This document shows positions 15,174 through 47,161 of a stretch of 64,000 bases of DNA, in pieces (position 1 is the first letter of the stretch; the number at the start of each line of letters is the position of its first letter). The notes beneath the pieces are model-generated. The model worked only from the letters and a program-made list of their open reading frames with translations, searched no databases and was not told where the DNA came from. The stretch covers positions 7,132,501 to 7,196,500 of the forward strand of contig NC_135243.1 in NCBI RefSeq assembly GCF_947623445.1, in the 5' to 3' direction. Source of the stretch: Clavelina lepadiformis (lineage: Eukaryota > Chordata > Ascidiacea > Aplousobranchia > Clavelinidae). A program made the position numbers and the translations under genes.

Positions 15174-18100
15174 ATGAAGCTCTTGTTAGTTCTCTTGGCG
15201 TGCGTTGCCGTAAGTGTTAATTTCGAGATCTGTGCAATACTTTGAAATGAACTAGACTTCTATTGATCTGAAACTAGATATTTTGACTTGTTCTTTTTCA
15301 GGCTGCCAATGCTTACTCTTACAGCTACTGGTGTGGACACCAATTCTATGTCTACCCTTCAAGCTATTGTCTCCGTTACCGTGTTGCCTTCAACCCATAT
15401 TGGTGCTCTCTCAGTTACTACTCCAAGGTTTTGAAGACCTACCCCGGTGAAAAATGCGGCGAAGCTGGATGGACAGGTGAAACATTGAACAAATTAAAAC
15501 TAATACAAGTTGATCTAAAACCATATTGAAAATGAATGAAACCAAACGTTTTAAAATCAATGTTTAACTCGTTACAACCCAATGCAATCGGGAAAAAGTA
15601 TTCAAAAACGCACCAATACTTTTGCCAGAAACTCCCGTCGCCACTTTGACCGGTCAGGTTTCTAGCGCTTTGAAAGCTGAACTCACCAAGATCACCGGTG
15701 ATCTTAACGCTGCCAGGACCAAGTGGTACAACGAAGTTACCGGCGTCTACAACAACTTCATTGCTGAACATCAGAAGTACATCACCATCTACTACAACTG
15801 GCTGTAAGTTCAGAAAGGTTTGCCCTGCGTAAATACAGTGTTGTATTCATAACTTTCTCAAACACTTGATAAATCAACTTGTCGTTTTTGGCTTGTCACA
15901 GTAAAGTGAAGTTCCCCGCCGAAGCTGCCAAATACAACACTGAAATGCAAAAGAAGTGCGCCGAATACAAGAAGAAGCTCGATGATCAAAAGGCAACAGC
16001 CGATGCCGCCTACAGAAAGGCCATCACCGATAAGATCAGCAGCGTCGCTGAATACCACAAGAAGGTCGTCAAGGCGTAAGTGGGCTTTGCAATAAATAAA
16101 CAAACTCATAAAGCACTGTAAACAAAGCTCTATACAAGCTACCGCGGTTTCACGATCGGATTATTTTGTTTAGTTTCTCTGACTGTTTGACCACTCGTGC
16201 CACCAAGCTTAGCGATTACAAGGACGCCTCTGCTAAAAAGATTCAGGAATACGTCCAGAAATTCGTCACTGCCAAGTTTGCCATCATTGAAAAGAACAAG
16301 GAAGCCTACAAGAAGGCTTTGGTTAAACTTTTCGGTAAGGTTAAAACATCAACTAGATGACATTTGATAATAAATCATAATCATGCTAAACTTACAATAA
16401 ATTGGAATAACCATTGTTTCAAACGTATGAATTATTATAGTTTGTGTTTAAACAAACAGCTCATGATATGCTAAATGCTTATTCTGTCAAACGTTTTGTA
16501 CAGCAATTGGTTTATGGATATTGGTACAAGCTATTTTTCACAGTAGGCTATAACGAATGATCATCATGACATTTTTTATAAGATATATACTTTTGTGATA
16601 ATTTTAAAAATGTTTCCTCAAATCCATTGATATTCTCATCCAATAACACTTTAACATGTTCAGATGCCCAGCCCGCTGCTGTCGACCACGCCACCACCTA
16701 TTACAGGGAACAAATGAAGATCAAGGTCTACGGTGAAAGCAGAAAATACCTCGACAATCTTGTCAAGTACTACGCCGCTCTTGTCAAGGCTTACACTTGC
16801 GCTTACAGCTGTTCCGTCGGTGGTTGTCTCGGTTTCTCCAAGCGCAGCTACTACAGTGGATGGTAAGAGAATCTTTTTAACAACGTTTGACTAATTTCAT
16901 TAAACAAACATGATTTACCAAATAAAATTTGCATAAATATTTATTTAAGTTCCTTACTTAATGAAGTAACGCATCACATACTCGATACTTGAAGCACATT
17001 TGTAATTATAGCACCAGATTGGCTACTTTCAAGTCCGCTATTGGCTGCAAGTACTACGGTTTGGGTGCCTACAACTACAAGGTCCGTTGCGGAACCTACA
17101 AGAACTTGAAGACCTGCGACCTCGGTAGAAAACTGACTTGCTTACTCTGAAGAGTAGCATGATAATTGTTCAATATACTTTTGTTTATGGACGCACAAAA
17201 CATATTTTACTTCAAGTATATTTTTGGAAACATAGATCTGTACCTGTAAATGATCACCCGGTCTTAACCACTTTTCAAAATGTTATCATTCTGTTCTTTA
17301 TAAAGCCGCCGTCGCCAAGGGTAACATCGATCAAGTTGTCGCTGATTTGGAAAAGAAGAGGGATGACACCGTCACCGCCCGCACTACCGCTTTCAACACC
17401 TGGAAGAGCAAGCAACAAGGTTTGAACACCCAATACCTTGCCGCTTACAGGAAGATTGTCTGCGACAGGCACACCTGGTATATCAATTACCTCACCGCCA
17501 GAGCTAACTGCGAGTAAGTTATAATGGCATTTGCATCACCTTTTTAGATCGCACCGTCATCTACAGATAGAATGAAATATCTGTTTTTGATTTTGTGCAG
17601 CGGAGTCACCACATCTGCCGAACAAACTGAAATCAACCAAGAACGTAGCAGACTTGCCGCCGAAAAGACCAAGTTGTACAACGCATACAAGGCTAAGCTC
17701 GACAAGATCATCACTGACGCCCAAACCAGCTTCAACAAGAGAATGGCCGACTACAAGAAGGCTGTCGGTGACCTTATCACCAAGATTAGAGGTTACTTCA
17801 ATGCTTGCACTACCAAGCGTACCAAGGCCATCAGCGATTACAAGAAAAAGCTCGAAGACAAACGTGACGCTTACAAAGTTGAACTTAACAAGAAGCTCGT
17901 TGCTGTAAGTTATTGCAGTGACTTATAATAAAAATATAAAGTAAGCCAGAGAAATTAAGTTTTAAAAACATCCTTGTTATTAATCAATTTCGTGCTCTTG
18001 GTTCTATAGTCCAGGACTGCCCACTTGGCCCATTTCCAGAAGATGCTTGATTGCTACCACGGTGAAGGCTCCACAGCTTCTGCTGTCACTCAGTTGAAAT

Positions 18101-18424
18101 CCACTTACACAAACTACATCGTCGGTAAAACCAACACCATGGTCAGAAACTTCTGCACCGAATATCAAAAGAAGATCGACAACCTTGTCAACCATTACTC
18201 CTGCAGCTACAAATGCAGAGTCAGTGCCTGCTACAGTTTGCCCAGTTACCACTGCGGCAGCTACTACAGCTGGCACTTTTCCGCCCCCAAGGCTAGCTGC
18301 TACACCTTCAAGTACAGCCTTTATTGGTAAGTGTGCTCAACTTTCGGCAAAACCGATTTCCTTTTTATTTGGCACAAGACTAATGATTTCCTTTTTTGTT
18401 TACAGCAACAGGTTTTACTGTTAA
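15174..18424 (+). CDS. Secreted Tyr/Lys/Cys-rich helical protein, copy A (11 exons)
   Basis: Exons: 15174-15209, 15302-15476, 15629-15803, 15902-16075, 16174-16334, 16664-16862, 17012-17124, 17306-17513, 17601-17904, 18010-18326, 18406-18424. Junctions are GT-AG and in phase; 626 residues. The signal peptide starts MKLLLVLLACVAAANA. Exon 2 encodes a Tyr/Cys-rich module (YSYSYWCGHQFYVYPSSYC). Exons 3-6 and 8-10 encode Lys/Ala-rich helical segments with recurring YKxxL/V units (YKKKL, YKKAL, YKAKL, YKKAV). Cys/Tyr modules follow each: YTCAYSC in exons 6-7 and YSCSYKC with YHCGSYYSW in exons 10-11. I recognise no family. Codons are strongly biased (AAG, TAC, GTC, GCC) against the AT-rich flanks, as in highly expressed genes. 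The donor after exon 7 (GTAGAA) is the weakest; without it the frame would end eight codons later. Role inferred only: a secreted structural or adhesive protein. Confidence 0.87.
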
Positions 18425-18438
18425 CTGACTACAAGAGA

Positions 18439-18444
18439 ATAAAA
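18439..18444 (+). promoter_or_regulatory. Poly(A) signal of gene A
   Basis: AATAAA 15 bp after the stop codon, conserved in copy B. Confidence 0.65.
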
Positions 18445-18674
18445 CCAACTTTCCATGAACATTTAGTGGAACAGTAGTTGTCATATAATGTACTAAAAAT
18501 AAACTGAAACCGAAAAGCAATGTTTCTTGTGATATCGATTCATGACCGAACAGAATTGAAGCAGTTAGGGTCAGACAGATATCATAATTATTTTAAAAAT
18601 TAAATCATTACCGAATAAAATAGGATATGAATCTACGCTTTGATCTATAGTATTTATTCAATGTTGTCTATATG

Positions 18675-18968
18675 CAGGGTTTCCAAAGTTTTCAGGCCAT
18701 GGACCCCTATTTGTGAATCTGTTATTTCTCGGTCCCCAGTCTTATGTCGAATCAAATTTTTCTGCGCAACCGGTCAAACATAACAAAAATAAATAACACC
18801 GAATCATAATTACTGACAAACTAGTGAGACGGATGGTGTTGCATATACGATTGCCAACGCTTCGAAATTTTTTCAATTACGAATCACTGTGTCAATTAAT
18901 TAATTATCTATGTCTGACTTTTTGTATTTTCTGTCATGTCGTCACGGACGCTAGTTTGGGAAACCCTG
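18675..18968. mobile_element. hAT-like MITE, 294 bp
   Basis: Perfect terminal inverted repeats CAGGGTTTCC / GGAAACCCTG, with GGACCCC-type subterminal sequence as in Charlie-like hAT elements. The flanking 8-mers (TCTATATG and TTCTACAA) are only partly alike, so the target duplication is eroded. It lies in the spacer between genes A and B. Confidence 0.7.
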
Positions 18969-19261
18969 TTCTACAATCTACACTGCTTACATTCAGACTT
19001 TAAAGTGCTATTATAAAAACATTTATCCTGGCTAAAGAAATAACTAATTTATTTAACGTTTCAGATCAAGACATAATATGCAAAAAATAGATTTCACAAA
19101 TAAACTATGTAATGAAAATCGAAAACCGTACACTTCTTTTACAAATTAGCTTTCTATCAGCTCTTAAACATTTCATACAAACTCTAGCCAAGTTTCACAC
19201 AACACGATAGGAAACCTCAATAGACACTCACGTTGTGATTACAAAGAAAGGGCTGTTTTTC

Positions 19262-20910
19262 TTTGAAAACTATACCGTTCTTTAAGTTGAGTCACGGCGC
19301 TAACCAGAAAAGGATAAAACGCTGCTCTTCTCCAGTAAGTGGAGACTGTATCAGCGGGAACATTTACCCGAAGAAGTTGGCGGGCTTATTTTCCAGGCAC
19401 GCCAATCGGACTTCCGTAAAGAATTTCTGCCCGAGTGAGATAATTGTAATATGTGTCGTCGTATGTCTTGCCAGGTGTGAATTGAGTTCTTTAAGGAGAC
19501 CATCGCTTGATAAATCCCAACAAAAGATGATTGTAGCAAAGTAGAAAACGTTTTTGTAACTTCCATCATTCTTGAGAAGCTGAAGACAACAGACTGTTAC
19601 TCCACCCACCGTGTTTGGCAATGCTGTTGCAGCTTTTTTTCGGGAGCTCTCTGGGCATTCCGACGCAATAATTTTCTGAACAACTGACATACCTTTGTTT
19701 GATTCTGCAAAAAAATGACAGTGGCTTTCATGACTGTGGAGCTGATGAATTGAACGAAAGTAGCATAAGTGTGGCACAGATTGAGATTATTATAGCACAA
19801 TGTACACAGCACATGCTTTTGAACACCATTGTAATTCTCTGACAAAGCTGAAGCACTGTCGTATCCTTGGGCAACCTTAAAAAAAAACATCCACACCTGA
19901 TTCTTTCAGAATTCGAAGAAACTGATCTGCTAAACCTGCGCCTGTGAGATCAAGTGCAAGAGAGAAACAAAAGAATCTTTCATACCTGCAAGAATCTTTT
20001 ACGTATCGCAGACAAACAATCAGCTGCTCTTGTTTCGAAAAATCCGTTGTTTCATCGGCCATGAGAGTAAAAAATTTGGTGTTGCACACTTCTTCCACGA
20101 GGACCTTTCTCTGTGCGACTTCAATAGCATTGATAAGATCGTCTTGTGTACTAGGAGATATGTACGTCGAATTACGAGGAGCATGTTTTAGATTGTTTTT
20201 TGCAATATGGGGATGATGATACATCATCTCCGCATTGCATCATTCAATGGAGAAGAGCTCGAAAATTTCCCTCGTTGAACGCTATGTCAATAGATAGCTC
20301 ACCACCATCCCTGTGTCTACGCAAAGTTAACCCAAGTTGTCCCAAGTGTTCAATTCCTTTGAAAATTCCTTTCAAGCACTCTCGATTCTTCGCTCGCTTC
20401 TCTGCAAAAGCACAGTCCAACTGCATAGCAGCGCTTCCAGTGTCGTTTCTCAATCGAAGTCCCTGTTCATTTTCCTCTCCCACACAGTGTGCATGGAAAT
20501 CCGTTTGAAGGTGACTGGTTAAACAGCCATGCTTCCCTGTTAAGGGAGCATATTTCTGCAACGGAAACTTCGCAAGAAGACTCAGCTTGATACCTCGAAC
20601 TGCCTTCAGTGCAAATATCACGCAATACTTGCAAAATAAGCCATTTTTCAAAAGAGAGAAAGCAAAAGATTCATTTGAACCAGAAATATGTTTCTTTCCG
20701 AGATACTTTTTTTCGCATTTTTTGTCGTCTTTGGGCACGTTGAAAGGCCAAACAAAGCTGTCAGAAGGACACCACACTTTGCCCAACAGTTCAAGACGCT
20801 TTCGGTCATCTAACAAAGAAGTGTCAATGGCATGTCCAATATCAAATTGCGACACTGCATCCGATAAACATGTGGCATATTTTTTACTATTTTTTCTGCT
20901 TCTTTGACGT
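19262..20910 (-). pseudogene. Decayed hAT transposase (TTF zinc finger / DUF4371 type)
   Basis: Reading 3' to 5' on the plus strand, four overlapping ORFs (20855-20244, 20227-19877, 19896-19597, 19777-19364) and a short tail to 19262 match consecutive parts of a ZMYM1-like hAT transposase. Visible are the N-terminal LLGKVWCPSDSFVWPF and FCKYCVIF (TTF-type finger), the catalytic-domain motif FTLMADETTDFSKQEQL, GYDSASALSENYNGVQ, CQTRWVE near the middle and YWRRAAFYPFL near the end. The ORFs use three frames, so at least three frameshifts are needed, and the C-terminal dimerisation domain appears lost. It is a DNA transposon relic inserted in the spacer of the A/B palindrome. A domesticated gene is unlikely given the frame breaks, though unseen introns could mimic some. 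Confidence 0.85.
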
Positions 20911-21242
20911 TGAAAAATAAGATTCTATTCCTCGCTTCGACTTCACTGAACTGAAACTGAAACGTTGCTATCTGCACAAACTTCTAATAAATAAATGTAT
21001 TCTTTACAAAGCTGAACCAATGGCCATTTGAAACAGTATTAAGAAAAATAATCATTGCTCACAACGGTTTTTATTTCAAAATTAAGGCTGTCTAAACTTT
21101 TCCTAAAATAAAAATTAGAATATACAGGTAAAGTAGCGTTCTAAGGGTTAACTAATGCCCCCGCCCCCCTAAATACGCTAGTGTGCACAGTGTACAATTT
21201 TCTTGAAGTGTCAGTTTTAACAATGTCAAGTTAAAATCGTTC

Positions 21243-21510
21243 ACTATGAATATGGAAATCCACCAGGGGTGTGTGCTGTCACCTCTTTTCGTCATAGTTT
21301 ACATGAATTGGAAAGTCAGGCATAACTTTTGTGATGATCGGTTTGTTCTGATTGGAGGCAGTAGAATCAGTCACATACTCCAGGAAAGACTTGCAAATCA
21401 AATTATGTTTGCCACAATAACCGACAAAAGAGCAACCGGTTGACCAAGAACCAAGTGGCATAATTACATCACTGACTTGGCCTGGTCACGACTAGATATC
21501 CCTTTAGCGT
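21243..21510 (+). mobile_element. Internally deleted LINE fragment (RTE-like reverse transcriptase)
   Basis: The start encodes HQGCVLSPLFVIVYMNW, a reverse-transcriptase palm motif. It runs almost directly into ERLANQIMFATITDKRATG and then PRTKWHNYITDLAWSRL, which in intact elements of this type is the C-terminal tail. The middle of the RT domain, including FADD, is missing. Confidence 0.75.
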
Positions 21511-22176
21511 CTCTTTCGTCACGTCTGAACTGACGTGACGAACCGTAGACGTAGTAAATAATCTTGTTTTAGGAGCTCCAAGAGCTACTATTCCCACAAC
21601 TCTCCTGTGAGAATGAATGAAAATTTTGCAACGAGAGAAAGAGAGAAAGTGAGCATATAAATAATCTATGACATGGCCGATGGTAACTGAACGCAGTTAT
21701 GCAAAGCACAAGATACGAGTAAGCACAGCACACCATCCGTGTCTCGAATCTTTTCAATGCAATTAGCAAAGGTTATCGACGTATTCATAATAAATTTTTG
21801 TGAAATTTACTAAAAATATATGACCTAGGTGGTTTAAAGACATCTGGCCAACACAACGACAACAACGATTTAATGTCATGATGTGTTTATTTGCACAGGA
21901 TAATATCTTTCGGTCAGGATTCATATAAATAGTTATCTCTATTTCGAGCTTAAGAGGTAATTTGTTAGTGCACTAGTTTTTTAATTAAAAAGAAAGCGAC
22001 AACTGAGCAAAAATAAACAGACGTGTTTTTCGTGCTTATTATATTTTTCTTCCATAAATAGGTTAAATGTTCAATTGGAGCTTCAGTTCGGAAATTGTTA
22101 CGCCATTGATTTAAACATTAAACGAGTTCATTACACATTTATAATTGTTTACAACACACTCGTAGTTTATAACACA

Positions 22177-22211
22177 TTGATAACTGTTGAGAATTATCCG
22201 GATAGCATTGT
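22177..22211 (+). repeat. Dispersed repeat fragment, copy 2
   Basis: Counterpart of 10187-10226: TTGAGAATTATCC, GGATAGCATT. Both lie in AT-rich non-coding DNA. Confidence 0.45.
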
Positions 22212-22214
22212 ACC

Positions 22215-23255
22215 ACAATCTCATGATGATTATACACAGCGTTCTTTTAAAGGTTGACTTTGGCAACCGCTGAGAAGTTTCAATAGACCGCAGTTATGTT
22301 ATCTAAGTATGTGAAAGGCATATACGGTAATTGGTATTTTTTTGCTATAGTTGCAGAGAAACATTTTTTGAGAGACCGTTGGAGAAATTCAACAAATCGT
22401 TTCGGTTCCTCAAAACGCCTTAAAAACACCGGTTATACAAAACGATTTTTATAAGTTTGTGGTGAGAAAATGTTTCTATAACTCTACAAAACAATCAATT
22501 TCACATATATACATCGGCAATTTAAATATTTTCGGCTGAAATGTTCCCTTATCCATGCTTGTTTTCTTTTTTAAAATAAATCGATAGCATTTTTATTAGT
22601 ATTTTTAGTTTTTTTTATTCACTAGCTTTGGTAAAATTTTTAAACTTGACTTTTCGGAAACTGGTGTATACCATATGTACAAAATACATATATGAACCGG
22701 AATAATCCCAAACACGAAAAAGAACAAAGGAAAAATTTAGAATTAACTGAAAATAACTAACAATAATAAGGATTAATTTAACTGATGATGATTTGTTTTT
22801 TGTTGGTATTGGCTATTGGGGTAGAATATAACAGAAAGAATGCTACATGCATATAAAGATTAATTTTATTAGGTCTTTGGGGTTAAGGTGTACAAATAAA
22901 AAAAACATTTGCATTGTTGCCAATCTTTCAATCGACCTACCATTTCCTTATTTTAAAAAGTTATTGAATTGTTAAACAGTCCATTGCCAAAGTTAGATTA
23001 GTCAAAAATCCTATACTTTCGATTTCTATATTAATGTTGGTGATGTAGTTGCGAGAACAACAATCTAAGCAGGGAGACTCTTGGTAAAACATTGGTTTTG
23101 GGTAATAACGTTTTATTTTAAATGCAACTGTCTGACTATAATTGCAACTGCATTTAAGCGACGGTTTAAACTTTTTTTAAATTTTCCTTCTATCTAACTC
23201 GATCAGGTCCTAAATTCTTCGACAGGCAATTTATATCACAAACCAATTCTTTCAT
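22215..23255. other. Remainder of the A/B spacer
   Basis: AT-rich sequence; I see no gene or clear element here. Confidence 0.45.
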
Positions 23256-23318
23256 GAGTTTATTTTAGTTATATTTTATGACAACTACTGTTCCACTACA
23301 TTTTCATGGAAAGTTGGT

Positions 23319-23324
23319 TTTATT
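23319..23324 (-). promoter_or_regulatory. Poly(A) signal of gene B
   Basis: AATAAA on the minus strand, same place relative to the stop as in gene A. Confidence 0.65.
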
Positions 23325-23337
23325 CTCTTGTAGTCAG

Positions 23338-26300
23338 TTAACAGTAAAACCTGTTGCTGTAAACAAAAAAGGAAAGCATTAGTCTTGTGCCAACTAAAAA
23401 GCAAATCGGTTTTGCCGAAAGTTGAGCAAACTTACCAATAAAGGCTGTACTTGAAGGTGTAGCAGCTAGCCTTGGGGGCGGAAAAGTGCCAGCTGTAGTA
23501 GCTGCCGCAGTGGTAACTGGGCAAACTGTAGCAGGCACTGACTCTGCATTTGTAGCTGCAGGAGTAATGGTTGACAAGGTTGTCGATCTTCTTTTGATAT
23601 TCGGTGCAGAAGTTTCTGACCATGGTGTTGGTTTTACCGACGATGTAGTTTGTGTAAGCGGATTTCAACTGAGTGACAGCAGAAGCTGTGGAGCCTTCAC
23701 CGTGGTAACAATCAAGCATCTTCTGGAAATGGGCCAAGTGGGCAGTCCTGGACTATAGAACCAAGATTACGAAATTAATTAATAACAAGGATGTTTTTAA
23801 AGCTTAATTTCTCTGGCTTACTTTATATTTTTATTATAAGTCACTGCAATAACTTACAGCAACGAGCTTCTTGTTAAGTTCAACTTTGTAAGCGTCACGT
23901 TTGTCTTCGAGCTTTTTCTTGTAATCGCTGATGGCCTTGGTACGCTTGGTAGTGCAGGCATTGAAGTAACCTTTAATCTTGGTGATAAGGTCACCGACAG
24001 CTTTCTTGTAGTCGGCCATTCTCTTGTTGAAGCTGGTTTGGGCGTCAGTGATGATCTTGTCGAGCTTAGCCTTGTATGCGTTGTACAACTTGGTCTTTTC
24101 ACCGGCAAGTCTGCTGCGTTCTTGGTTGATTTCAGTTTGTTCGGCAGATGTGGTGACTCCGCTGCACAAAATCAAAAAAAGATATTTCACTCCATCTGTA
24201 GATGAAGGTACGATCTAAAAAGGTGATGCAAATGCCATTATAACTTACTCGCAGTTAGCTCTGCTGGTGAGGTAATTGATGTACCAGGTGTGCCTGTCGC
24301 AGACAATCTTCCTGTAAGCGGCAAGGTATTGGGTGTTCAAACCTTGTTGCTTGCTCTTCCAGGTGTTGAAAGCGGTAGTGCGGGCGGTGACGGTGTCATC
24401 CCTCTTCTTTTCCAAATCAGCGACAACTTGATCGATGTTACCCTTGGCAACGGCGGCTTTATAAAGAATAGAATGATAACATTTTGAAAAGTGGTTAAGA
24501 CCGGGTAATCATTTACAGGTACAGATTTATGTTTCCAAAAATATATTTGAAGGAAAATATGTTTTTGCGTCCATAAACAAAAGTATATTGAAAAATTATC
24601 ATGCTTCTCTTCAGAGTAAGCAAGTCAGTTTTCTACCGAGGTCGCAGGTCTTCAAGTTCTTGTAGGTTCCGCAACGGACCTTGTAGTTGTAGGCACCCAA
24701 ACCGTAGTACTTGCAGCCAATAGCGGACTTGAAAGTAGCCAATCTAGTGCTATAAATACAAATGTGCTTCAAGTATCGAGTATATGATGCGTTCATTCAT
24801 TAACTAAGGAACTTAAATAAATACTTATAAAAATTTTATGTAGTAAATCATGTTTGTTTAATGAAATTAGTCAAACTTTTTTGAAAATATTTTCTTACCA
24901 TCCACTGTAGTAGCTGCGCTTGGAGAAACCGAGGCAACCACCGACGGAACAGCTGTAAGCGCAAGTGTAAGCCTTGACAAGAGCGGCGTAGTACTTGGTA
25001 AGATTGTCGAGGTATTTTCTGCTTTCACCGTAGACCTTGATCTTCATTTGTTCCCTGTAATAGGTGGTGGCGTGGTCGACAGCAGCGGGCTGGGCATCTG
25101 AACATGTTAAAGTGTTATGTGATGATAATATCAATGGGTTTGAGGAAACATTTTTATAATTGTCACACAAAAGCATGTATCTTATAAAAAATGTCATCAT
25201 GATCATTCGTTATAGCCTTATGTGAAAAATAGCTTGTACCAATATTAATACACCAATTGCTGTACAAAACGTTTGACAGAATAGGCTTTCAGCGTATCAT
25301 GAGCTATTTGTTTAAACACAAACTGTAATAAATCATACGTTTGAAACAATGGTTATTCCAATTTATTGTAAGTTTAGCATGATTATGATTTGTTATCAAA
25401 TGTCATCTAGTTGATGTTTTAACCTTACCGAAAAGTTTAACCAAAGCCTTCTTGTAGTTTTCCTTGTTCTTTTCAATGATGGCAAACTTGGCAGTGACGA
25501 ATTTCTTGACGTATTCCTGAATCTTTTTAGCAGAGGCGTCCTTGTAATCGCTAAGCTTGGTGGCACGAGTGGTCAAACAGTCAGAGAAACTAAACAAAAT
25601 AATCCGATCGTGAAACCGCGGTAGCTTGTATAGAGCTTTGTTTACAATGCTTTATGAGTTTGTTTATTTATTGCAAAGCCCACTTACGCCTTGACGACCT
25701 TCTTGTGGTATTCAGCGACGCTGCTGATCTTATCGGTAATGGCCTTTCTGTAGGCGGCATCGGCTGTTGCCTTTTGATCATCGAGCTTCTTCTTGTATTC
25801 GGCGCACTTCTTTTGCATTTCAGTGTTGTATTTGGCAGCTTCGGCGGGGAACTTCACTTTACTGTGACAAGCCAAAAACGACAAGTTGATTTATCAAGTG
25901 TTTGAGAAAGTTATGAATACAACACTGTATTTACGCAGGGCAAACCTTTCTGAACTTACAGCCAGTTGTAGTAGATGGTGATGTACTTCTGGTGTTCAGC
26001 AATGAAGTTGTTGTAGACGCCGGTAACTTCGTTGTACCACTTGGTTCTGGCAGCGTTAAGATCACCGGTGATCTTGGTGAGTTCAGCTTTCAAAGCGCTA
26101 GAAACCTGACCGGTCAAAGTGGCGACGGGAGTTTCTGGCAAAAGTATTGGTGCGTTTTTGAATACTTTTTCCCGATTGCATTGGGTTGTAACGAGTTAAA
26201 CATTGATTTTAAAACGTTTGGTTTCATTCATTTTCAATATGGTTTTAGATCAACTTGTATTATTTTTAATTTGTTCAATGTTTCACCTGTCCATCCAGCT

Positions 26301-26589
26301 TCGCCGCATTTTTCACCGGGGTAGGTCTTCAAAACCTTGGAGTAGTAACTGAGGGAGCACCAATATGGGTTGAAGGCAACACGGTAACGGAGACAATAGC
26401 TTGAAGGGTAGACATAGAAATGCTGTCCACACCAGTAGCTGTAAGAGTAAGCATTGGCAGCCTGAAAAAGAACAAGTCAAAATATCTAGTTTCAGATCAA
26501 TAAAAATCTAGTTCATTTGGAAGTATTGCACAAATCTCGAAATTAACACTTACGGCAACGCACGCCAAGAGAACTAACAAGAGCTTCAT
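23338..26589 (-). CDS. Secreted Tyr/Lys/Cys-rich helical protein, copy B (11 exons)
   Basis: Exons, 5' to 3' on the minus strand: 26589-26554, 26461-26287, 26134-25960, 25861-25688, 25589-25429, 25097-24899, 24749-24637, 24456-24249, 24161-23858, 23752-23436, 23356-23338. The protein has 626 residues and nearly equals copy A. Differences I can see include VQKF to VKKF and KEAY to KENY in exon 5, LVKYY to LTKYY in exon 6, LAAEK to LAGEK and KIRGYF to KIKGYF in exon 9, and KSTYTNY to KSAYTNY in exon 10. Domain layout is as in A: signal peptide, Tyr/Cys module, helical YKxxL segments, Cys/Tyr module, then a second round. It faces gene A tail to tail. All frames are open, so both copies look functional. 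Confidence 0.87.
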
Positions 26590-26650
26590 GTTTTTTTTCA
26601 CCAACGTTCGACTCTGCAAGTGAAAACTGGAGTTTGTACTGGATCATGGC

Positions 26651-31952: not shown

Positions 31953-32613
31953 CTACTGCTGGTTGACTGGAATTTCGCAGACTCCATAGAGGTTAGCATA
32001 GCATGAGTAATCGTTCGTCTTGTAAAGGCGTGAGCTGTCTACTTCACCACAGTACTCATTGTAGCTATGGAAATTGTTGGGTTCGTTGGCGGCCCAATGC
32101 TCGTTGCCATGACTTTGGTCCAACCAAGTCCATCGTCTGTTGTGTTGAGGATCAGAAAGCCCGATCCAGTACCATCTTCCCTGTGGAATGCTGCTGAAGA
32201 TTTTTCTGTTAAAAAAAGGACATTAGTTAGGACTTTAACCGTCGATGATAAACAAATGTGTTAGTTTAGACGAAACACAAAAGACAGCTTGGAACTTTTT
32301 TGAAAGATTAATTGAACAACTTGAGTACACAACAAATTTGCACTAAAACTTACTTTCTTGCTTCAAAGTCTTTGGCTCCGGCCACTACCAGATCTCCGCC
32401 TAGCTGTTGGCAGGCTCTGCGACTAGCTGACCAGCTTTGTGTCGTTGCTGTCACTTGATAACGATATTCCCTACTTGGCTGCGCATTGTTGTTGTTGTTG
32501 TTGGCGTTTGACGCTGCGTCACATCTCTCTATGATGTAAAGAGGAGGACAGCGTGGAACTCCTTCCACGTTTACCCACAAAATCAAACCCAAAATCAGAG
32601 TTTGGTGAAACAT
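31953..32613 (-). CDS. Secreted C-type lectin (two exons)
   Basis: Exons 32613-32354 and 32205-31953 (minus), 170 residues. A signal peptide (MFHQTLILGLILWVNVEG) is followed by the Cys pair CPPLYIIERC, as in long-form lectin domains, and an Asn-rich run (NANNNNNN). The lectin fold then shows ACQQLGGDLV, WYWIGLSD, WTWLDQ, EPNN, YCGEVDSS and YSCYANLYGVCE. The EPN motif and an ND pair in place of WND suggest Ca-dependent binding of mannose- or GlcNAc-type sugars; this is family knowledge, not shown here. Ascidians and other invertebrates carry many such single-domain lectins, often in immunity or mucus. The AA|A codon split at the intron restores the frame. No partner genes lie nearby. Confidence 0.88.
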
Positions 32614-37353: not shown

Positions 37354-37672
37354 AATGGCTACTTCAAAGAAACTACCACCGAAGCTCAAGGACGATGGCA
37401 TAATCACAATTTAGCGCAATAAAATTGATATGTGCCGGATGATCATCAGTGTTGCGAAGAAGAAACAACGTATTGTTATTAAATTCTTTGGAAGGGCTCA
37501 AAAAGCTGTGTCGGAGTTGAGAGTTGACCAGCTACATGGTGAAGGTGGACTAAATACCCTTACAGACTCGCAGAACAAGGCATGGAGCTATGTACATAGA
37601 GCTGTTTTAGCCTTTGTATTTCCCTATGCAGCCGATTTAAAGCCAAAAGAAAGACAGCTTGCACTTACTTAA
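37354..37672 (+). mobile_element. Fossil retroelement fragment, gag-like
   Basis: The translated stretch, with SKKLPPKLKDDG, SVAKKKQRIVIKFFGRAQ and VSELRVDQLHG, resembles the start of gag in invertebrate and fish LTR retroelements. It is broken and only this part is recognisable. The 36.8-37.3 kb DNA before it may belong to the same insertion, but I cannot define LTRs. Confidence 0.5.
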
Positions 37673-37699
37673 TGTAATGACCTTAAGCAAAATTATTCG

Positions 37700-38456
37700 T
37701 AATCTGCCTTAACGGATCAAAGTCTCATTTGAATAAGCATATATGACAGAACAAGCTTTCTGTTGCATATTCCACAGAGGGATCCTGTAATCTGGTTCTT
37801 CATTAGCTTTTACTCGGGAGATTATTTTTGCACTTTCTGACATTGACGTTGAACAAACTTATGTTAGAAGAAATATATTATAATTTCGATAAAGAAAGTG
37901 AGAAGTGATTGGACATAGAAACTGACCGTGGTGAGGCTCGGGCGTAGGTCGGATTAACGCAAAACGTTTAAGGGCCTGTAGTAGCATTTTAAGCAGTTTT
38001 GAAACGGCAACACGGCGACTGTGACGAAGGGCTTATGCACGACGTCACTATAGAAAAACTATAATTGGTTCCGGTCCAGTGCGCATGTGACGTTATTTTG
38101 GGATGGCTCATTGTAGTTATGGCTTTTGCTGAGTGTAGGTCCAGGCTAAAGTTGACATTTTGTGTTGGTTCAAAATTAAGGCTTTTTGGCTGCTTTTTTG
38201 AAAAAATGTAAGGAAAAACGTTGTATAAAAGTCGAAGCATTTAGTTGTGTGAGAATTCCAGATACGAGAATTTGCTCAAAATACTGCATTAAGTCCTTTT
38301 ATCCTACATATTGGTGGATACAAAAACTTTGCTAGGGGACCGGGTTTGTTTAGTAGCCAATGCACATTGAAAATATTTACTTTGCATTGTTTAAGATAGG
38401 GCTTCGGATGGGCCCACAGCACCTTAAAAAATCAATAGTTGTTGCTGAAACTAACC
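37700..38456. other. No recognisable gene
   Basis: Contains a GC-richer patch (37970-38120) with an 83-residue minus ORF of unknown nature, perhaps repeat-derived. Confidence 0.35.
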
Positions 38457-38636
38457 ATAGGTTGATCTGGAATGTGCGCTTTAATGAGACGGTCGACATA
38501 TCTTGCGAGTTTGTGTTCCGATGGAATAAATATAAGCTCAATTATTTTGCAAACTTTTTCACAATCTTTCAAATATAAAAGATGCTTCATGTCTGAAGGT
38601 AAACTATCTTTCAACAAGCAACATTTAGAGAAACAA

Positions 38637-38642
38637 TTTATT
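38637..38642 (-). promoter_or_regulatory. Poly(A) signal of gene C
   Basis: AATAAA on the minus strand, about 95 bp after the stop. Confidence 0.55.
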
Positions 38643-38736
38643 GTAATACAAATCACAATAAATGCAATTCTATTTTAAAACGCAATTTCAAATGCAAAGG
38701 ATTCGTTATTAGTGCCGGTCAATTTTCCATCGATGC

Positions 38737-41559
38737 TTACCTTTTAGTGGTAGTATAGCTGTAAAAATTAACACAAGAATTTAGTTTCTCTTTTAACTGC
38801 AAAGGCACATTTTAAACAATATTTCTACTTTAAATCACACACAAAACTTACCACCAAAGACGGTATTGGAAGCAGTAACTAGTGGGGGTGGGAATTTTGA
38901 CAACCCAGTTGAAGTAACTGCCGCAGTGGTAGGTGGGAGCGCAGTAAGTCTTCATAGTACACTTGTAAGAGCAAGCGTAATGTTGAACAAGATCGTCGAT
39001 CTTCTTTCTCCAATCAGCATCAAATTGACGTATCACGACATTACAATTAGAGACAAGCCTATCAGCATAGCAGCTGTACATCCATCTAACATAAGTGTTT
39101 TTATAATAGCAACTTCCGTGGTAGAATTCAAGCATGTCATGGTAGGACCTCCAGTGGACATTTTTAGCCTGAAATCGAATTGAAAACCATGGATGAAATT
39201 GGTGCATAAACTATTGATTGCTACCTACCTACATGCTAGTTTTATAATAATTATACCTTGTACATTTTCTCTATGAAATTTTTACGAGCAGCATCGCGTT
39301 GAGCTTCGAGCTTCTTCTTGTAAGCACCGATGGCAGCTGTACGTTTGGTTTTGCAAGTTTCGAAACTTGCTTTAACCTTGGCAATGAGATCATTAACGCT
39401 CTTCTTGTAAGCGGCAATCCTGGCAGTGAACTTGGTAACGCAATCAAGGATTTGAGCAGCAAGCTTAGCCTTGTATTCGGCGACCAATTTTTTAGATTGT
39501 GCTTGGAGAGCGGCGCATTGTCTGTTGATCTCAATGACGTAGTTGTAACTGATGACGCCACTGCATAAAAACGAGGTAATTACTTAAGCGTTTTGTGCAA
39601 GAAAAATGTTGGCGTCACATAAATTTTTACGTCAAACATACTTGCAAGTGTATTTGGTGCGGAGATACTGAATGTACCAGTTGTGCCTGTCCTTGATGAT
39701 CTGTTCGTACTTGGCAATGTATTGCAAATGGATGCTGATCCACTTGGATTTCCAAGAGCTAAAAGCAGCAGTACGGGCCCGGACAACTTCGTCTCTCTTC
39801 TTGGTTAATTCAGCAACAACACCATCGATGCTACCAGCGTCATCTTTTAAAACGAATTCAAATTAAAAAACTAACTATCAACAGAGAATTTAGTCTATCG
39901 GGTGTATACTTACTGACGTCACACTTCTTCAAGTTCTTGTAGGTGCAGGAGCGGTATTTGTAAACGAAAGGAGACAAAGAATAACGAGCATATTTGTAGG
40001 TGTTCTTGTAACAATACCAGGTACCAAGGCTCTTGCTAAAAAGTGTTGTGTATCAAACGAGGCTCATAATAATAATTTTTGTTAAATATATAAACATCAA
40101 CTCACCAGTTGGTGTAGTAAGTTTTGCTGGAGAATCTGTTTCCGTATCCGGCGTAGCAACGATATGCGCAGGTGTAGTACTGGACAAGCTTAGCACGGTA
40201 TTGAGCAAGATGTGCAGCGTATTGTCTGGACAAAGAGTAAACCCTGAACTTTTGGGATGAGTGGTAGCTGGAGACGACCCAGTTGAGCTTCCAGTATTCC
40301 CAGTAAGATTGACCATTATCTGGAGAAATTATGTTTTACATTAAAATCTCAGTGTATCAAGTTAGAGCATGTGATGAAACTGCCAAAGCAAATTATTCCC
40401 TCACCGTAAAGTTTGTGCAAAGCTGCTCTGTATCCGGCAACGTTCTTTCCGCAAATTGCCAGATTCATGGCGGTGAATTTGTTGACGTAATCCTTGATCT
40501 TGGCATCGAGTTTAGTTTTGTATTCGGCAAGCTTTTGGAGACGGGTGTTCAAGCAATCAACGGTACTAAATAAAGTTTTAGCTTGTTTGTTACAAGAAAC
40601 GTTTAAGTTTTGAAATCCATTTTTGACGCGAATACTTACGACTTAACCATCTTTTCGTGATATTGAGCGACCATGCTGAGTTTTGCTCTGGCACCTGTGC
40701 AATAACGACCAACAGCGGCAAGCTTGGCCTGGAGGAGTCTCTGCTTGTATTCGTTGATCCTCCTGTCTCGTTCAGCAATGAGAACCGACTTGTTGGCCAA
40801 AGGATAGGCGCAGCTGCAAATATTTTATGCTTTAAATACTTTTACAGGTACAGGTATATAGAATTTAATTGCTGTTCTCTTGTGGACGTTGCTCTCCATA
40901 TGAAATATTTGAACATGGATTATCAGGTTGACACTAAAATGATTTATCTAAATGTAATTGATATTTACTTACAGGTAGTTATAATAGATCTTGATGTAAT
41001 GTTCGAATTCGTTGGTGTACTTGGCATGAGCAGCACAGATGCTATTAATGAATTGACCTTTTTGGCTTGAAATATCCTGTGAGGCCTTGATATAGTGTGG
41101 TCTCAAGCAGCCCCTCAATTCCTTTTCCAGATCAGGAACGGAAGATTCTTTTCAACAAACAATCGGTCAAAACCTTTTATTGAAAATAAGTTTTTTTTTC
41201 ACGTTTACCAAAACAAAATCAAACTTACCCCTCCAACTTGGTTGACCACATCTATCATTGGGGTAATACTTCAAGTAAGGTGCGTAGTACTTAATGTCAC
41301 AATAAGCATGGTTGAATTTAATGCTGTATGTGTAGCAATTGGTAGTGGGAAAGACGCAGAATTTATGCGCACACCAATAGTTGTACGGATGAATGTAGGA
41401 AAGAGCGCTGGATGCCTGTCCGAAAAGAATTGGTTGATTTTATTAATAATACCTTTAAGCGTAGTACGTTATACTAATTAGATATCACAAAGCGTAACTA
41501 AGTTATAACCATAATTTACTTACGGCAATGCACGCGAAAAGAACCAACAAAAGCTTCAT
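38737..41559 (-). CDS. Secreted Tyr/Lys/Cys-rich helical protein, copy C (11 exons)
   Basis: Exons, 5' to 3' on the minus strand: 41559-41524, 41415-41229, 41147-40973, 40813-40640, 40565-40405, 40319-40106, 40035-39914, 39843-39642, 39560-39257, 39168-38852, 38758-38737. Junctions are GT-AG and in phase; 637 residues. It is a paralogue of A/B: six of the eleven exons have the same length in both (36, 175, 174, 161, 304 and 317 bp), and intron phases match. It starts MKLLLVLFACIA. Helical segments keep YKxxL units (YKQRL, YKTKL, YKAKL, YKKSV, YKKKL), and the C-terminal module keeps YACSYKC and YHCGSYFNW. The last exon ends CYTTTKR, unlike gene D, because of a 2-bp length difference in that exon. 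Function unknown; a secreted structural protein is inferred. Confidence 0.85.
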
Positions 41560-41620
41560 GGTGCTGTCCAAGATGCTTGTTTAGTCGAATGAAGACTGGT
41601 TAATATATTTCTGTCGAGCC

Positions 41621-41628
41621 GTTTATAT
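41621..41628 (-). promoter_or_regulatory. TATA box of gene C
   Basis: TATATAAA on the minus strand, about 70 bp upstream of the ATG, within AGTATATAAACGGCTCGAC, shared with gene D. Confidence 0.7.
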
Positions 41629-42059
41629 ACTGTTTCTCCTCTACTTCTCCGATGTTTAATTCTGTTGTGTTTTATCACGCAACTACTCATTTATGCAAAC
41701 AAATGCATTTTAAAAACTAGCTTTTTTAATTTAACAAAACAACTTTTAAGAAATTTACTGTAAAGTACTCACATGCGAATATTTGTTCTAAATGTTATGA
41801 CGGCTTCCAGGTTACCATTTCCATACGACATTAATATATTAGTCGTTATTTATTAAAATTTTGTTGTTTTAACCCTTTGTTGTGATGATTTGCAACATCA
41901 TTTGTCAAACGATTTGTAACAAATATAGTTCTTTGTTGTTTGCAGAAGCAAGGTTAATTGTTTTTACATTTGAGCTGTTTATAATCACACTTCAAAAACC
42001 TACAACGCAATGCATCCACTTTGGCGTTAGAAACGTCTCGCAAAACACAACAAGAAATC

Positions 42060-43847
42060 AATACGTTCATCGTTTCAGATTTTTTCTCGTTAAGTGACGT
42101 AGTTATATTTTTAACAATTATATCTTGTTTTCTTCTAGGCTTTTAAGAAATAAAATCTGTCGCTGGGTCAACAATTGATATAGGCATCCCAAGAGAAACA
42201 CAAATTGATATGGACTAGCGACTAGATTTGACAATCAGTTGAGTTATAAATTTTATTTCTATAACATACTTTTTGACAAATTTGACAATATCAAAAACAA
42301 GGTTAACGAAATGTAACGGTAGATTGAGTAAGTCAATCAATGTAGATCGAAGTCGGATAAAAAAGAATAAAACAGGAAAACATTAATTTTAAATCTTGAT
42401 CTAAAACACAATGTTTTGTTTAAAAATAACTCATAGGCACACCTATTGACTATTGCATACAAAATAATAAACGCTCTATTTCACAAGAGATTTTATTGGA
42501 AATATTTTATCAACGAAAAACATTTTTTCGCCAATAACATACTGTATAAGTGTATATGAAGGCATTCTTATCACAGAAAGTCTAAAAATTTTCTTCGTCC
42601 TATATAGATATTTATGTTTATCAAGTATCGACAACAATCCCAGTAAAAAAATTATCTATAGCGTAAAGTAATTCAAATCAAATTTATACATTGTTGCAAC
42701 TATTAGTAATAAGCGAACTGATAGACTGGTGATAACTGCTTCTCCTTCCAGGATCTCTTCCACACGATTCTTCAATGTTGAAAGTTACAACAAGGTATCC
42801 ATGCAGAAATGAAATTTTCGAAACAATACTTAACGTTTTTCTTTGATCTTCTACCTTAAAAGTGTTAAATAGAACAAAATGATAAAAAAAGTCCTTTAGA
42901 ATCTTATAGATAAAAAAGATCGCTTCAATCTGCTTAAATTATACATCTTCCAAGTTATTAGTCCAACATGCACCTCATATACAAAGACATAGAAAGTCAT
43001 ACTCTGATACGCAAAATATTGAATCAGGTGTAAGCCATCCTCATCCCAGTCAGTTACTGCTTCCAATAACGTCTTTGGCGGTAAGTTTTGTGTGTCAGTT
43101 CTGCTTTTTGCAAAGTCACAGATATTTGCGAAAACATTAACTTCAAAAAACTTTCAAATCTGTTTTCGAAGACTTCATTTTTTCCACAAAAAGCGAAATA
43201 TTAAGACCTTTACAAAACATGATCAGAAAAGATGTTTGACGAAGATATGTAAGGTTCAGGAAGATTTGCCAACCTTCAGCGGAGCGTTGCAGTGGTGCGC
43301 GTACTCCAAAGGGTTCTGGGTGTATTATTAGGATTTATTACCAAACGCAAAGGAGAGATTTTGAAGCACTACGAGAAGTGGTATACACTGTCTCACCGTA
43401 TCCTAAAACTAGATTTGTATATGTGTATATTTTTGGCTTGAACTATTTTAGTGTTTTAATTTGAACTCTGTGTGACTGATGTACTTCTTTCTACCGATGT
43501 ACTTTTTTCTTTTGTTGTTATTCTTTAAAGTGAGGGGCAAGTCCAAAAACAAGTTGATCTTATATGAACGAACACTATTAAGAACAGTACTTACTGAATA
43601 TTGTGGAAAATAGTTTTGAAAAATAATTCTGGGTTAGGTAATAATAATCAAAAGAAAATAGCAGGATTGGCGAATCGAACTTTTTGATCGAAAAAGTAAA
43701 CGTTCGGGTGAATACAAGAGTGAAGCTCGAGTTCGTGACAACACTTAAAATGGTGACGTTCGTGCTGGACGTTCGGGCTCGTCGGCCTGATCGGCAAATT
43801 CCAACAAAATACACTGGCATGCAAAAACAGATACGATGAACACTTTA
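42060..43847. other. Spacer between genes C and D
   Basis: 1.8 kb of DNA unique to neither arm, AT-rich, holding the exon relic at 43037-43098 and no other recognisable gene. Any promoter shared by the two divergent genes would have to reach across it. Confidence 0.5.
43037..43098 (+). pseudogene. Relic of exon 10 of a further family copy
   Basis: The stretch containing AGTTACTGCTTCCAATAACG and GTCTTTGGCGGTAAGTTTTG matches the end of exon 10 and the donor of genes C and D with only a few changes. It stands alone, without neighbouring exons, in the spacer. Confidence 0.8.
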
Positions 43848-44276
43848 ATTTCTTGTTGTGTTTTGCGAGACGTTTCTAACGCCAAAGTGGATGCATTGCG
43901 TTGTAGGTTTTTGAAGTGTGATTATAAACAGCTCAAATGTAAAAACAATTAACCTTGCTTCTGCAAACAACAAAGAACTATATTTGTTACAAATCGTTTG
44001 ACAAATGATGTTGCAAATCATCACAACAAAGGGTTAAAACAACAAAATTTTAATAAATAACGACTAATATATTAATGTCGTATGGAAATGGTAACCTGGA
44101 AGCCGTCATAACATTTAGAACAAATATTCGCATGTGAGTACTTTACAGTAAATTTCTTAAAAGTTGTTTTGTTAAATTAAAAAAGCTAGTTTTTAAAATG
44201 CATTTGTTTGCATAAATGAGTAGTTGCGTGATAAAACACAACAGAATTAAACATCGGAGAAGTAGAGGAGAAACAG

Positions 44277-44284
44277 TATATAAA
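44277..44284 (+). promoter_or_regulatory. TATA box of gene D
   Basis: TATATAAA 70 bp upstream of the ATG, same context as gene C. Confidence 0.7.
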
Positions 44285-44346
44285 CGGCTCGACAGAAATA
44301 TATTAACCAGTCTTCATTCGACTAAACAAGCATCTTGGACAGCACC

Positions 44347-47161
44347 ATGAAGCTTTTGTTGGTTCTTTTCGCGTGCATTGCCGTAAGTAAATTATGGTTA
44401 TAACTTAGTTACGCTTTGTGATATCTAATTAGTATAACGTACTACGCTTAAAGGTATTATTAATAAAATCAACCAATTCTTTTCGGACAGGCATCCAGCG
44501 CTCTTTCCTACATTCATCCGTACAACTATTGGTGTGCGCATAAATTCTGCGTCTTTCCCACTACCAATTGCTACACATACAGCATTAAATTCAACCATGC
44601 TTATTGTGACATTAAGTACTACGCACCTTACTTGAAGTATTACCCCAATGATAGATGTGGTCAACCAAGTTGGAGGGGTAAGTTTGATTTTGTTTTGGTA
44701 AACGTGAAAAAAAAACTTATTTTCAATAAAAGGTTTTGACCGATTGTTTGTTGAAAAGAATCTTCCGTTCCTGATCTGGAAAAGGAATTGAGGGGCTGCT
44801 TGAGACCACACTATATCAAGGCCTCACAGGATATTTCAAGCCAAAAAGGTCAATTCATTAATAGCATCTGTGCTGCTCATGCCAAGTACACCAACGAATT
44901 CGAACATTACATCAAGATCTATTATAACTACCTGTAAGTAAATATCAATTACATTTAGATAAATCATTTTAGTGTCAACCTGATAATCCATGTTCAAATA
45001 TTTCATATGGAGAGCAACGTCCACAAGAGAACAGCAATTAAATTCTATATACCTGTACCTGTAAAAGTATTTAAAGCATAAAATATTTGCAGCTGCGCCT
45101 ATCCTTTGGCCAACAAGTCGGTTCTCATTGCTGAACGAGACAGGAGGATCAACGAATACAAGCAGAGACTCCTCCAGGCCAAGCTTGCCGCTGTTGGTCG
45201 TTATTGCACTGCTGCCAGAGCAAAACTCAGCATGGTCGCTCAATATCACGAAAAGATGGTTAAGTCGTAAGTATTCGCGTCAAAAATGGATTTCAAAACT
45301 TAAACGTTTCTTGTAACAAACAAGCTAAAACTTTATTTAGTACCGTTGATTGCTTGAACACCCGTCTCCAAAAGCTTGCCGAATACAAAACTAAACTCGA
45401 TGCCAAGATCAAGGATTACGTCAACAAATTCACCGCCATGAATCTTGCTATTTGCGGAAAGAACGTTGCCGGATACAGAGCAGCTTTGCACAAACTTTAC
45501 GGTGAGGGAATAATTTCCTTTGACAGTTTCATCACATACTCTAACTTGATACACTGAGTTTTTTAATGTAAAACATAATTTCCCCAGATAATGGTCAATC
45601 TTACTGGGAATATTGGAAGCTCAACTTGGTCGTCTCCAGTTACCACTCAACCCAAAAGTTCAAGGTTTACTCTTTGTCTAGACAATACGCTGCACATCTT
45701 GCTCAATACCGTGCTAAGCTTGTCCAGTACTACACCTGCGCATATCGTTGCTACGCCGGATACGGAAACAGATTCTCCAGCAAAACTTACTACACCAACT
45801 GGTGAGTTGATGTTTATATATTCAACAAAAATTATTATTATGAGCCTCGTTTGATACAAAACACTTTTTAGCAAGAGCCTTGGTACCTGGTATTGTTACA
45901 AGAACACCTACAAATATGCTCGTTATTCCTTGTCTCCTTTCGTTTACAAATACCGCTCCTGCACCTACAAGAACTTGAAGAAGTGTGACGTCAGTAAGTA
46001 TACACCCGATAGACTAAATTCTCTGTTGATAGTTAGTTTTTTAATTTGAATTTGTTTTAAAAGATGACGCTGGTAGCATCGATGGCGTTGTTGCTGAATT
46101 AACCAAGAAGAGAGACGAAGTTGTCCGGGCCCGTACTGCTGCTTTTAGCTCTTGGAAATCCAAGTGGATCAGCATCCATTTGCAATACATTGCCAAGTAC
46201 GAACAGATCATCAAGGACAGACACAACTGGTACATTCAGTATCTCCGCACCAAATACACTTGCAAGTATGTTTGACGTAAAAATTTATGTGAGGTCAACA
46301 TCTTCCTTCCACAAAACGCTTAAGTAATTACCTCGTTTTTATGCAGTGGCGTCATCAGTTACAATTACGTCATTGAGATCAACAGACAATGCGCCGCTCT
46401 CCAAGCACAATCTAAAAAATTGGTCGCCGAATACAAGGCTAAGCTTGCTGCTCAAATCCTTGATTGCGTTACCAAGTTCACTGCCAGGATTGCCGCTTAC
46501 AAGAAGAGCGTTAATGATCTCATTGCCAAGGTTAAAGCAAGTTTCGAAACTTGCAAAACCAAACGTACAGCTGCCATCGGTGCTTACAAGAAGAAGCTCG
46601 AAGCTCAACGCGATGCTGCTCGTAAAAATTTCATAGAGAAAATGTACAAGGTATAATTATTATAAAACTAGCATGTAGGTAGGTAGCAATCAATAGTTTA
46701 TGCACCAATTTTATCCATGGTTTTCAATTACATTACAGGCCAAAAATGTTCACTGGAGGTCCTACCATGACATGCTTGAATTCTACCACGGAAGTTGCTA
46801 TTATAAAAACACTTATGTTAGATGGATGTACAGCTGCTATGCTGATAGGCTTGTCTCTAATTGTAATGTCGTGATACGTCAATTTGATGCTGATTGGAGA
46901 AAGAAGATCGACGATCTTGTTCAACATTACGCTTGCTCTTACAAGTGTACTATGAAGACTTACTGCGCTCCCACCTACCACTGCGGCAGTTACTTCAACT
47001 GGGTTGTCAAAATTCCCACCCCCACTAGTTACTGCTTCCAATACCGTCTTTGGTGGTAAGTTTTGTGTGTGATTTAAAGTAGAAATATTGTTTAAAATGT
47101 GCCTTTGCAGTTAAAAGAGAAACTAAATTTTTGTGTTAATTGTTACAGCTACTACCACTAA
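44347..47161 (+). CDS. Secreted Tyr/Lys/Cys-rich helical protein, copy D (11 exons)
   Basis: Exons: 44347-44382, 44491-44677, 44759-44933, 45093-45266, 45341-45501, 45588-45801, 45872-45993, 46064-46265, 46347-46650, 46739-47055, 47149-47161. Junctions are GT-AG and in phase; 634 residues. Nearly the same protein as C, with few changes in exons 1-10 (for example TGAR-type codons near 45220 read TAAR in D). Signal peptide MKLLLVLFACIA; exon 2 module with YNYWCAHKFCVFPTTNCYTY; helical segments from exon 3; Cys/Tyr module YTCAYRCYAG in exon 6; second helical round in exons 8-9; C-terminal YACSYKC and YHCGSYFNW. It ends CYYH. It diverges from C across a 1.8-kb spacer. All frames are open, so it looks functional; the function is unknown. 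Confidence 0.86.

What the first reader, a model, noticed from the sequence alone, without database searches (positions are those of the whole stretch)
15174..47161. Unrecognised secreted protein family with YKxxL helical arrays and Cys/Tyr modules
The four proteins have signal peptides and long Lys/Ala-rich helical stretches in which Tyr recurs in units such as YKKKL, YKKAV and YKAKL, alternating with compact modules (YxCxYxC, YHCGSY[YF].W). I know no domain like this. The mix suggests a cross-linked or coiled structural secretion such as tunic, mucus or adhesive material.
Basis: partly seen in the sequence, partly recalled or inferred. Interest (0 to 1): 0.75.

Follow-up and report, generated by a model that had tools for sequence, protein, structure and literature searches.

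The report
Tyrosine-striped hendecad rod proteins, sea squirt
A small family of secreted-looking sea-squirt proteins, with no recognised relatives in the databases searched, is built from long helices that repeat every eleven residues and carry a stripe of tyrosines, joined by small cysteine- and tyrosine-rich modules; this looks like a structural secretion, though its use in the animal is not yet tested.

Summary
The window is from the ascidian Clavelina lepadiformis: contig C4 is 25,070,715 bases, the reported scaffold N50, with chromosome 4 given as 25.07 Mb. Four intact 11-exon genes form two inverted pairs, A1/A2 and B1/B2; a fifth, C, lies 14.5 Mb away. A whole-genome search with A1 at E<=0.01 found only these five. 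A, B and C share exon phases, are 41-44% identical, and are under coding constraint.

Each protein is an N-terminal Cys/Tyr module plus two homologous units of helices and a Cys/Tyr module (hhalign E 9.4e-15). The YKxxL units belong to an 11-residue hendecad (a-d-e-h), not a heptad; in exon 9, 9 of 12 Tyr sit at d or h. No Pfam model neared its cut-off; PDB sequence hits were sub-threshold (best E 0.0067; ApoA-I 0.02); pattern scans found no viral or prokaryotic relative.

Most likely a secreted, cross-linkable rod protein of tunic, mucus or adhesive. Function, transcripts and other tunicates could not be tested; the one structure model is low-confidence.

The parts
15174..18424 (+). Gene A1: 11 exons 15174-15209, 15302-15476, 15629-15803, 15902-16075, 16174-16334, 16664-16862, 17012-17124, 17306-17513, 17601-17904, 18010-18326, 18406-18424; 626 aa
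   Evidence: open, GT/AG, phases shared with B1 and C
23338..26589 (-). Gene A2: inverted copy of A1, 626 aa, 98.6% identical
   Evidence: coding 25 changes of 1881, non-coding 71 of 1457
38793..41559 (-). Gene B1: 11 exons, 631 aa; last exon uncertain (a 4-nt exon, or an alternative that adds a few residues)
44347..47161 (+). Gene B2: inverted copy of B1, 631 aa, 99.4% identical; CDS ends at 47114, or at 47161 with the alternative last exon
15108..15115 (+). TATA box of A1, TATAAATA at -66 from the ATG; similar boxes at -69 (A2), -70/-68 (B1), -70/-68 (B2), -77 (C)
   Evidence: 5 of 5 genes
15302..15476 (+). Exon 2 of A1: N-terminal Cys/Tyr module with 4 Cys invariant in A1, B1, C
15629..16334 (+). 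Exons 3-5 of A1: first hendecad stretch
16664..17124 (+). Exons 6-7 of A1: presumed short helix (by alignment of the two halves) and middle Cys/Tyr module (YTCAYSC)
17306..17904 (+). Exons 8-9 of A1: second hendecad stretch; exon 9 keeps one 11-residue register over 88 residues without gap in A1, B1, C
18010..18326 (+). Exon 10 of A1: short helices and C-terminal Cys/Tyr module (YSCSYKC, YHCGSYYSW)
   Evidence: (low-confidence model)

Best explanation
A secreted, basic (pI about 9.5), 70-73 kDa structural protein made by an ascidian. Shown: a sequence that reads as a signal peptide; an N-terminal Cys/Tyr module, then two homologous units, each of stretches in a hendecad (a-d-e-h) pattern followed by a Cys/Tyr module; Tyr mostly at d and h, on one edge of the apolar face; constraint on coding sequence. 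Inferred: the stretches are helices that pair into rods with the tyrosines along the seam; the Cys/Tyr modules are disulfide-closed knots that cap or join rods; chains associate into fibres or a gel and are fixed by disulfides and by oxidised Tyr-Lys or Tyr-Tyr links, giving tunic matrix, mucus or adhesive.
For: Five intact genes; A, B and C with identical phases and 41-44% identity. Tyr (34 of 62), Cys (14 of 26, one in the signal sequence) and Trp (5 of 8) are invariant more often than residues overall (186 of 626), as are Leu (22 of 43), His (6 of 11), Pro (4 of 8) and Phe (8 of 18). In exon 9 hendecad core positions are hydrophobic at 22/32, 22/32 and 19/32 (A1, B1, C) against 2/56, 4/56 and 4/56 elsewhere, 0 of 1000 shuffles as strong; heptads fit no better than chance. 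Unit duplication E 9.4e-15. TATA boxes in 5 of 5. The genome holds tyrosinase-domain sequences (9 matches), and an ascidian phenol oxidase is reported to be secreted into the tunic (PMC9395347, passages).
Against: No transcript, tissue, chemistry or reliable structure was seen. A family of five genes is small for a bulk material. Tyr in the apolar face could simply be core packing. The helix period also fits lipid-binding apolipoproteins. Tyr periodicity alone is not significant in the second stretch of B1, and Tyr lies elsewhere on the wheel in exon 3. The Tyr share (9-11%) is below what I recall for DOPA glue proteins. The only structure model has mean pLDDT 49, below 40 from residue 71 on, over most of the Cys module.
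Confidence: 0.5

Rival explanations
1. Lipid carrier that works like exchangeable apolipoproteins: the 11-residue amphipathic helices coat lipid, and the Cys/Tyr modules bind receptors or link chains.
For: Period 3.66-3.68. The best PDB look-alikes of exon 9 are ApoA-I chains, E 0.022 to 0.095, three of the four alignments shown being without gaps over 53 residues in their first stretch. The Pfam Apolipoprotein model touches 3 of 3 paralogs at E 0.31 or worse.
Against: All matches are below threshold: 10 and 11.1 bits against a cut-off of 90 for A1 and B1 (bits of C not listed), and the per-domain E of the best ApoA-I match is 1.4. At E<=1 the Pfam model rings in 13 of 14 control genomes, and in this genome its 6 matches are elsewhere, none in the five genes. 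Proline punctuation, recalled as typical of ApoA-I, is absent from exon 9 of A1, B1 and C; 3-5% Cys and pI about 9.5 are unlike ApoA-I (recalled).
Confidence: 0.15
2. Secreted defence protein of blood cells or tunic: a cationic helical protein with disulfide knots that binds or damages microbes.
For: Basic and secreted in form; inverted duplicates; a C-type lectin domain lies between the pairs.
Against: Long hendecad array with conserved exon lengths; constraint in both pairs rather than diversification (dN/dS about 0.23 and 0.08); no known domain over a Pfam cut-off. The defence library (PADLOC) was not searched.
Confidence: 0.12
3. Tyr-rich precursor of DOPA peptides (tunichrome-like) or a metal-binding blood protein, not a rod material.
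For: 9-11% Tyr with Lys and Cys richness in an ascidian; YY pairs seen in the sequence. A review considers ribosomal precursors possible for such peptides (PMC3039461, passages).
Against: No repeated short peptide units seen by eye; Tyr positions largely follow helix geometry. No vanabin is listed among PDB matches, though I did not check that the copy holds one.
Confidence: 0.06
4. The inverted pairs are partly an assembly effect (two haplotypes folded into one), so the animal has A, B and C once each. This would change gene number only, not the protein family, and can hold beside any of the others.
For: The arms are 94-99% complementary, which may be near allelic divergence in ascidians (recalled).
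Against: The paper reports 117-fold HiFi coverage and curation that removed 9 haplotypic duplications (PMC10884593, passages). The spacers differ and one holds a transposon-like remnant.
Confidence: 0.15

Closest known systems
Hendecad right-handed coiled coils (e.g. ATP synthase peripheral stalk)
   Same: Hydrophobic residues at a, d, e, h of an 11-residue repeat, as defined in PMC6131620 (passages). Weak hits to chloroplast b' (E 0.19) and yeast subunit 4 (E 0.45); the same paper says mitochondrial stalks lack the canonical motif.
   Different: Apparently extracellular, Tyr at d and h, separated by Cys/Tyr modules; no significant sequence match.
Exchangeable apolipoproteins (ApoA-I, PF01442)
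   Same: 11/22-residue amphipathic helix period; local resemblance in exon 9 in the alignments.
   Different: Below every cut-off; no Pro in exon 9; basic; Cys/Tyr modules.
Oikosins of the Oikopleura house
   Same: Tunicate extracellular proteins, about half without domain modules (PMC3390340, abstract and passages).
Tuphoxin, phenol oxidase of ascidian tunic
   Same: Only a possible partner enzyme: secreted into the tunic, proposed to harden it (PMC9395347, passages).
   Different: An enzyme, not a relative; whether this genome has a TSP1-tyrosinase fusion was not established (one search was capped).

Membership tests
Hendecad coiled coil | hydrophobic a-d-e-h positions in an 11-residue repeat | tested here: met
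   four stretches in each of A1, B1, C: 0-15 of 1000 shuffles as strong; heptad 156-987 of 1000
Hendecad coiled coil | right-handed supercoil, oligomer | not testable with these tools
Exchangeable apolipoprotein (PF01442) | Pfam score over cut-off (90 bits) | tested here: not met
   10 bits (A1) and 11.1 bits (B1); C only by E-value, 0.31 or worse
Exchangeable apolipoprotein (PF01442) | 11/22-residue amphipathic helix period | tested here: met
   period 3.66-3.68
Exchangeable apolipoprotein (PF01442) | lipid binding | not testable with these tools
   needs protein
Vanabin | sequence match to a solved vanabin structure | tested here: inconclusive
   no vanabin listed among matches to E 1 or E 5; presence of a vanabin in the copy was not checked
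DOPA or dityrosine cross-linked structural protein | modified Tyr in the secreted product | not testable with these tools
   needs mass spectrometry
Oikosin | homology to a named oikosin | not tested
   no oikosin sequences were fetched

The most novel reading that the evidence does not exclude
A new class of extracellular fibrous protein: right-handed hendecad rods with an in-register tyrosine stripe on the helix seam, capped by Cys/Tyr knots, assembled and oxidatively zipped into a tunicate matrix or glue, evolved by internal duplication of one rod-plus-knot unit.
Probability: 0.3. Interest if true: 0.72.

Novelty: new variant of a known kind. Interest (0 to 1): 0.5.

Why it matters
One report finds that tunicates build their outer matrices from radically different proteins (PMC3390340, abstract and passages). 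If these are matrix proteins, they give a concrete set of genes (A, B, C; five loci) to test, and a natural design in which cross-linkable tyrosines are placed by helix geometry rather than in disordered repeats.

Tried and rejected
Heptad coiled coil: rejected. Chance open frames: rejected by shared phases, paralog constraint, and substitutions concentrated outside exons. Bacterial or viral origin: no relative found by pattern scans, which reach only relatives holding the chosen conserved peptides. Large family expansion: not seen at E<=0.01 with A1 as query (37 of 37 matches fall in five genes; the tool calls its counts lower bounds). Link to a TSP1-tyrosinase: inconclusive, since only 150 of 873 TSP1 candidates were scored. 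Kinship among the three Cys/Tyr modules compared alone: N with C-terminal E 0.0023 at probability 5%, middle with C-terminal E 0.0056 at 2.8%, N with middle E 0.8; suggestive at most. Mitochondrial-code test of tunicate identity: COX1 not found in the held assembly, so identity rests on contig length. Fold search was not run, because the only model had mean pLDDT 49. Paper searches that showed no such protein: (no paper found). Only the listed 8-20 papers of each were seen, by title and start of abstract (for instance 12 of 25,224), so absence from print is not claimed.
Full report
What the window is. The genome has 209,060,895 bases in 95 contigs. Contig C4 is 25,070,715 bases long. The Clavelina lepadiformis kaClaLepa1.1 paper reports a scaffold N50 of exactly 25,070,715 and chromosome 4 as 25.07 Mb (PMC10884593, passages). 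C1 is 5,500 bases shorter than the published 28,789,166, and the total and contig number also differ (210.1 Mb in 102 scaffolds), so the held version is not identical.

The genes. Splice sites were placed by hand. A1 and A2 code for 626 residues, B1 and B2 for 631, gene C (C4:21,683,213-21,686,379; L007) for 628. All five have 11 exons; A1, B1 and C were tabulated with the phases 0,1,2,2,1,2,1,2,0,2, and A2 and B2 have the exon lengths of their partners. TATA boxes begin 66-77 bases before the ATG in 5 of 5, and the first AATAAA lies 14-151 bases after the stop in 5 of 5. The last exon of B1 and B2 is ambiguous. The signal peptide is read by eye; no predictor was run.

Selection. A1/A2: dN 0.008, dS 0.035. 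B1/B2: dN 0.0026, dS 0.033. A1/B1: dN 0.56, dS 1.66, near saturation. For C the synonymous rate could not be computed, as saturated. Between A1 and A2, 25 of 1881 coding bases differ against 71 of 1457 non-coding; between B1 and B2, 16 of 1896 against 33 of 1728; gaps fall only outside exons. The proteins are maintained.

Family size. With A1 as query at E<=0.01, 37 matches were found and all 37 fall in A1 (9), A2 (9), B1 (6), B2 (6) and C (7). The tool warns that counts are lower bounds. A query with C did not complete and a profile query is not accepted for this genome.

Architecture. Pairwise identity is 41-44%; 186 of the 626 A1 residues are invariant in A1, B1 and C: Tyr 34 of 62, Cys 14 of 26, Trp 5 of 8, His 6 of 11, Leu 22 of 43, Pro 4 of 8, against Ser 3 of 40 and Thr 3 of 51. 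So Tyr and Cys are well kept, but not alone in that. The two halves are homologous: profile comparison gives probability 98.6% and E 9.4e-15 over 248 columns, and single-sequence alignments give z 16 (A1) and 10.5 (B1). The protein is thus an N-terminal Cys/Tyr module plus two units, each of helical-looking stretches closed by Y.C.Y.C and a further Cys/Tyr stretch. Compared alone, the three modules resemble each other only weakly.

The helical array. In six stretches of A1 and B1 (two are parts of others) LIVMFYW residues repeat at 3.66-3.68 residues, 0 of 2000 shuffles as strong in each; this is 11/3. Exon 9 can be written as eight 11-residue rows without a gap in A1, B1 and C. Positions 4, 7, 8 and 11 are hydrophobic in 18, 13, 14 and 18 of 24 cells, the a-d-e-h pattern of a hendecad (definition in PMC6131620, passages). 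Of the 12 Tyr in these cells, 4 are at d and 5 at h. Across four stretches and three paralogs the hendecad core was matched or beaten by 0 to 15 of 1000 shuffles, a heptad core by 156 to 987 of 1000; the offset was chosen as the best one in data and shuffles alike. The mean direction of Tyr lies 35 to 75 degrees to one side of the apolar centre in nine of twelve stretches (exons 4-5, 8 and 9), and at +31, -21 and -5 degrees in exon 3. In exon 9 the YKxxL word is thus the visible part of this register: Tyr at h or d, then Lys, then a core residue. Tyr periodicity alone is not significant in the second stretch of B1 (799 of 2000).

Known families. Pfam: nothing near a cut-off. NCBIfam: none for A1; five weak hits to single other members, best E 0.0035. 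PDB by sequence: best profile hit E 0.0067 to an NKG2-D chain, then ApoA-I at 0.036 and keratin 10 at 0.094. Exon 9 alone: ApoA-I chains 0.022-0.095, a chain named H12 0.082, chloroplast ATP synthase b' 0.19, with a per-domain E of 1.4 for the best. I read these as likeness of helix pattern, not kinship. Exon 10: one hit, E 0.42. PHROGs and PADLOC were not searched.

Structure. The one finished prediction (exon 10 of A1 alone, no relatives) gives helices 2-17, 23-37 and 42-63 at block means of 56-63 and values below 40 from residue 71 on; mean pLDDT 49. It is weak support for helices and none for the module. Exon 9 could not be folded.

How it may work. Shown: signal-like start, duplication, hendecad, Tyr stripe, conserved Cys. 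Inferred: helices, rods, knots, cross-links and matrix use. Phenol oxidase activity is reported in ascidian tunic (PMC9395347, passages) and tyrosinase-domain sequences exist here, so oxidation of Tyr is possible, not shown. The apolipoprotein-like reading is kept as the main rival because the same 11-residue geometry serves lipid binding.

Limits. No transcript data, no other tunicate and no UniProt were available, so the family may be described elsewhere or occur widely. That, and the untested function, keep the score moderate.

Noticed in passing
window 15167-26596 and 38458-47447: Two inverted duplications (palindromes) of different genes of one family within about 32 kb, arms 94-99% complementary, with similar synonymous divergence (0.035 and 0.033); similar age or gene conversion is possible.
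   Followed up: partly
window 19367-20924 (-): Transposon-like remnant in the loop of the A palindrome: frame 19880-20239 matches DUF4371 (E 5.3e-9), which I recall as part of hAT-type transposases; frame 20247-20924 had no Pfam match at E 0.01.
   Followed up: partly
window 31956-32222 (-): C-type lectin domain between the two pairs (E 3.5e-9); the neighbouring frame 32353-32625 may be its upstream exon, but Pfam gave only a sub-cut-off PilX hit there.
   Followed up: no
window 3-254, 4589-5143, 63245-63598: Neighbours: NAGPA phosphodiester glycosidase, thrombospondin type 1 domain, fascin domain.
   Followed up: no
L055-L057 (G000:C9:15642270-15643133): Long open frames with a sub-cut-off match to the Apolipoprotein model (best E 1.5e-4); possibly another long amphipathic helix protein.
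   Followed up: no
L019-L024 (G000:C1, C5, C7): Nine tyrosinase-domain matches at four or five places; whether any is a TSP1 fusion like Tuphoxin was not resolved.
   Followed up: partly
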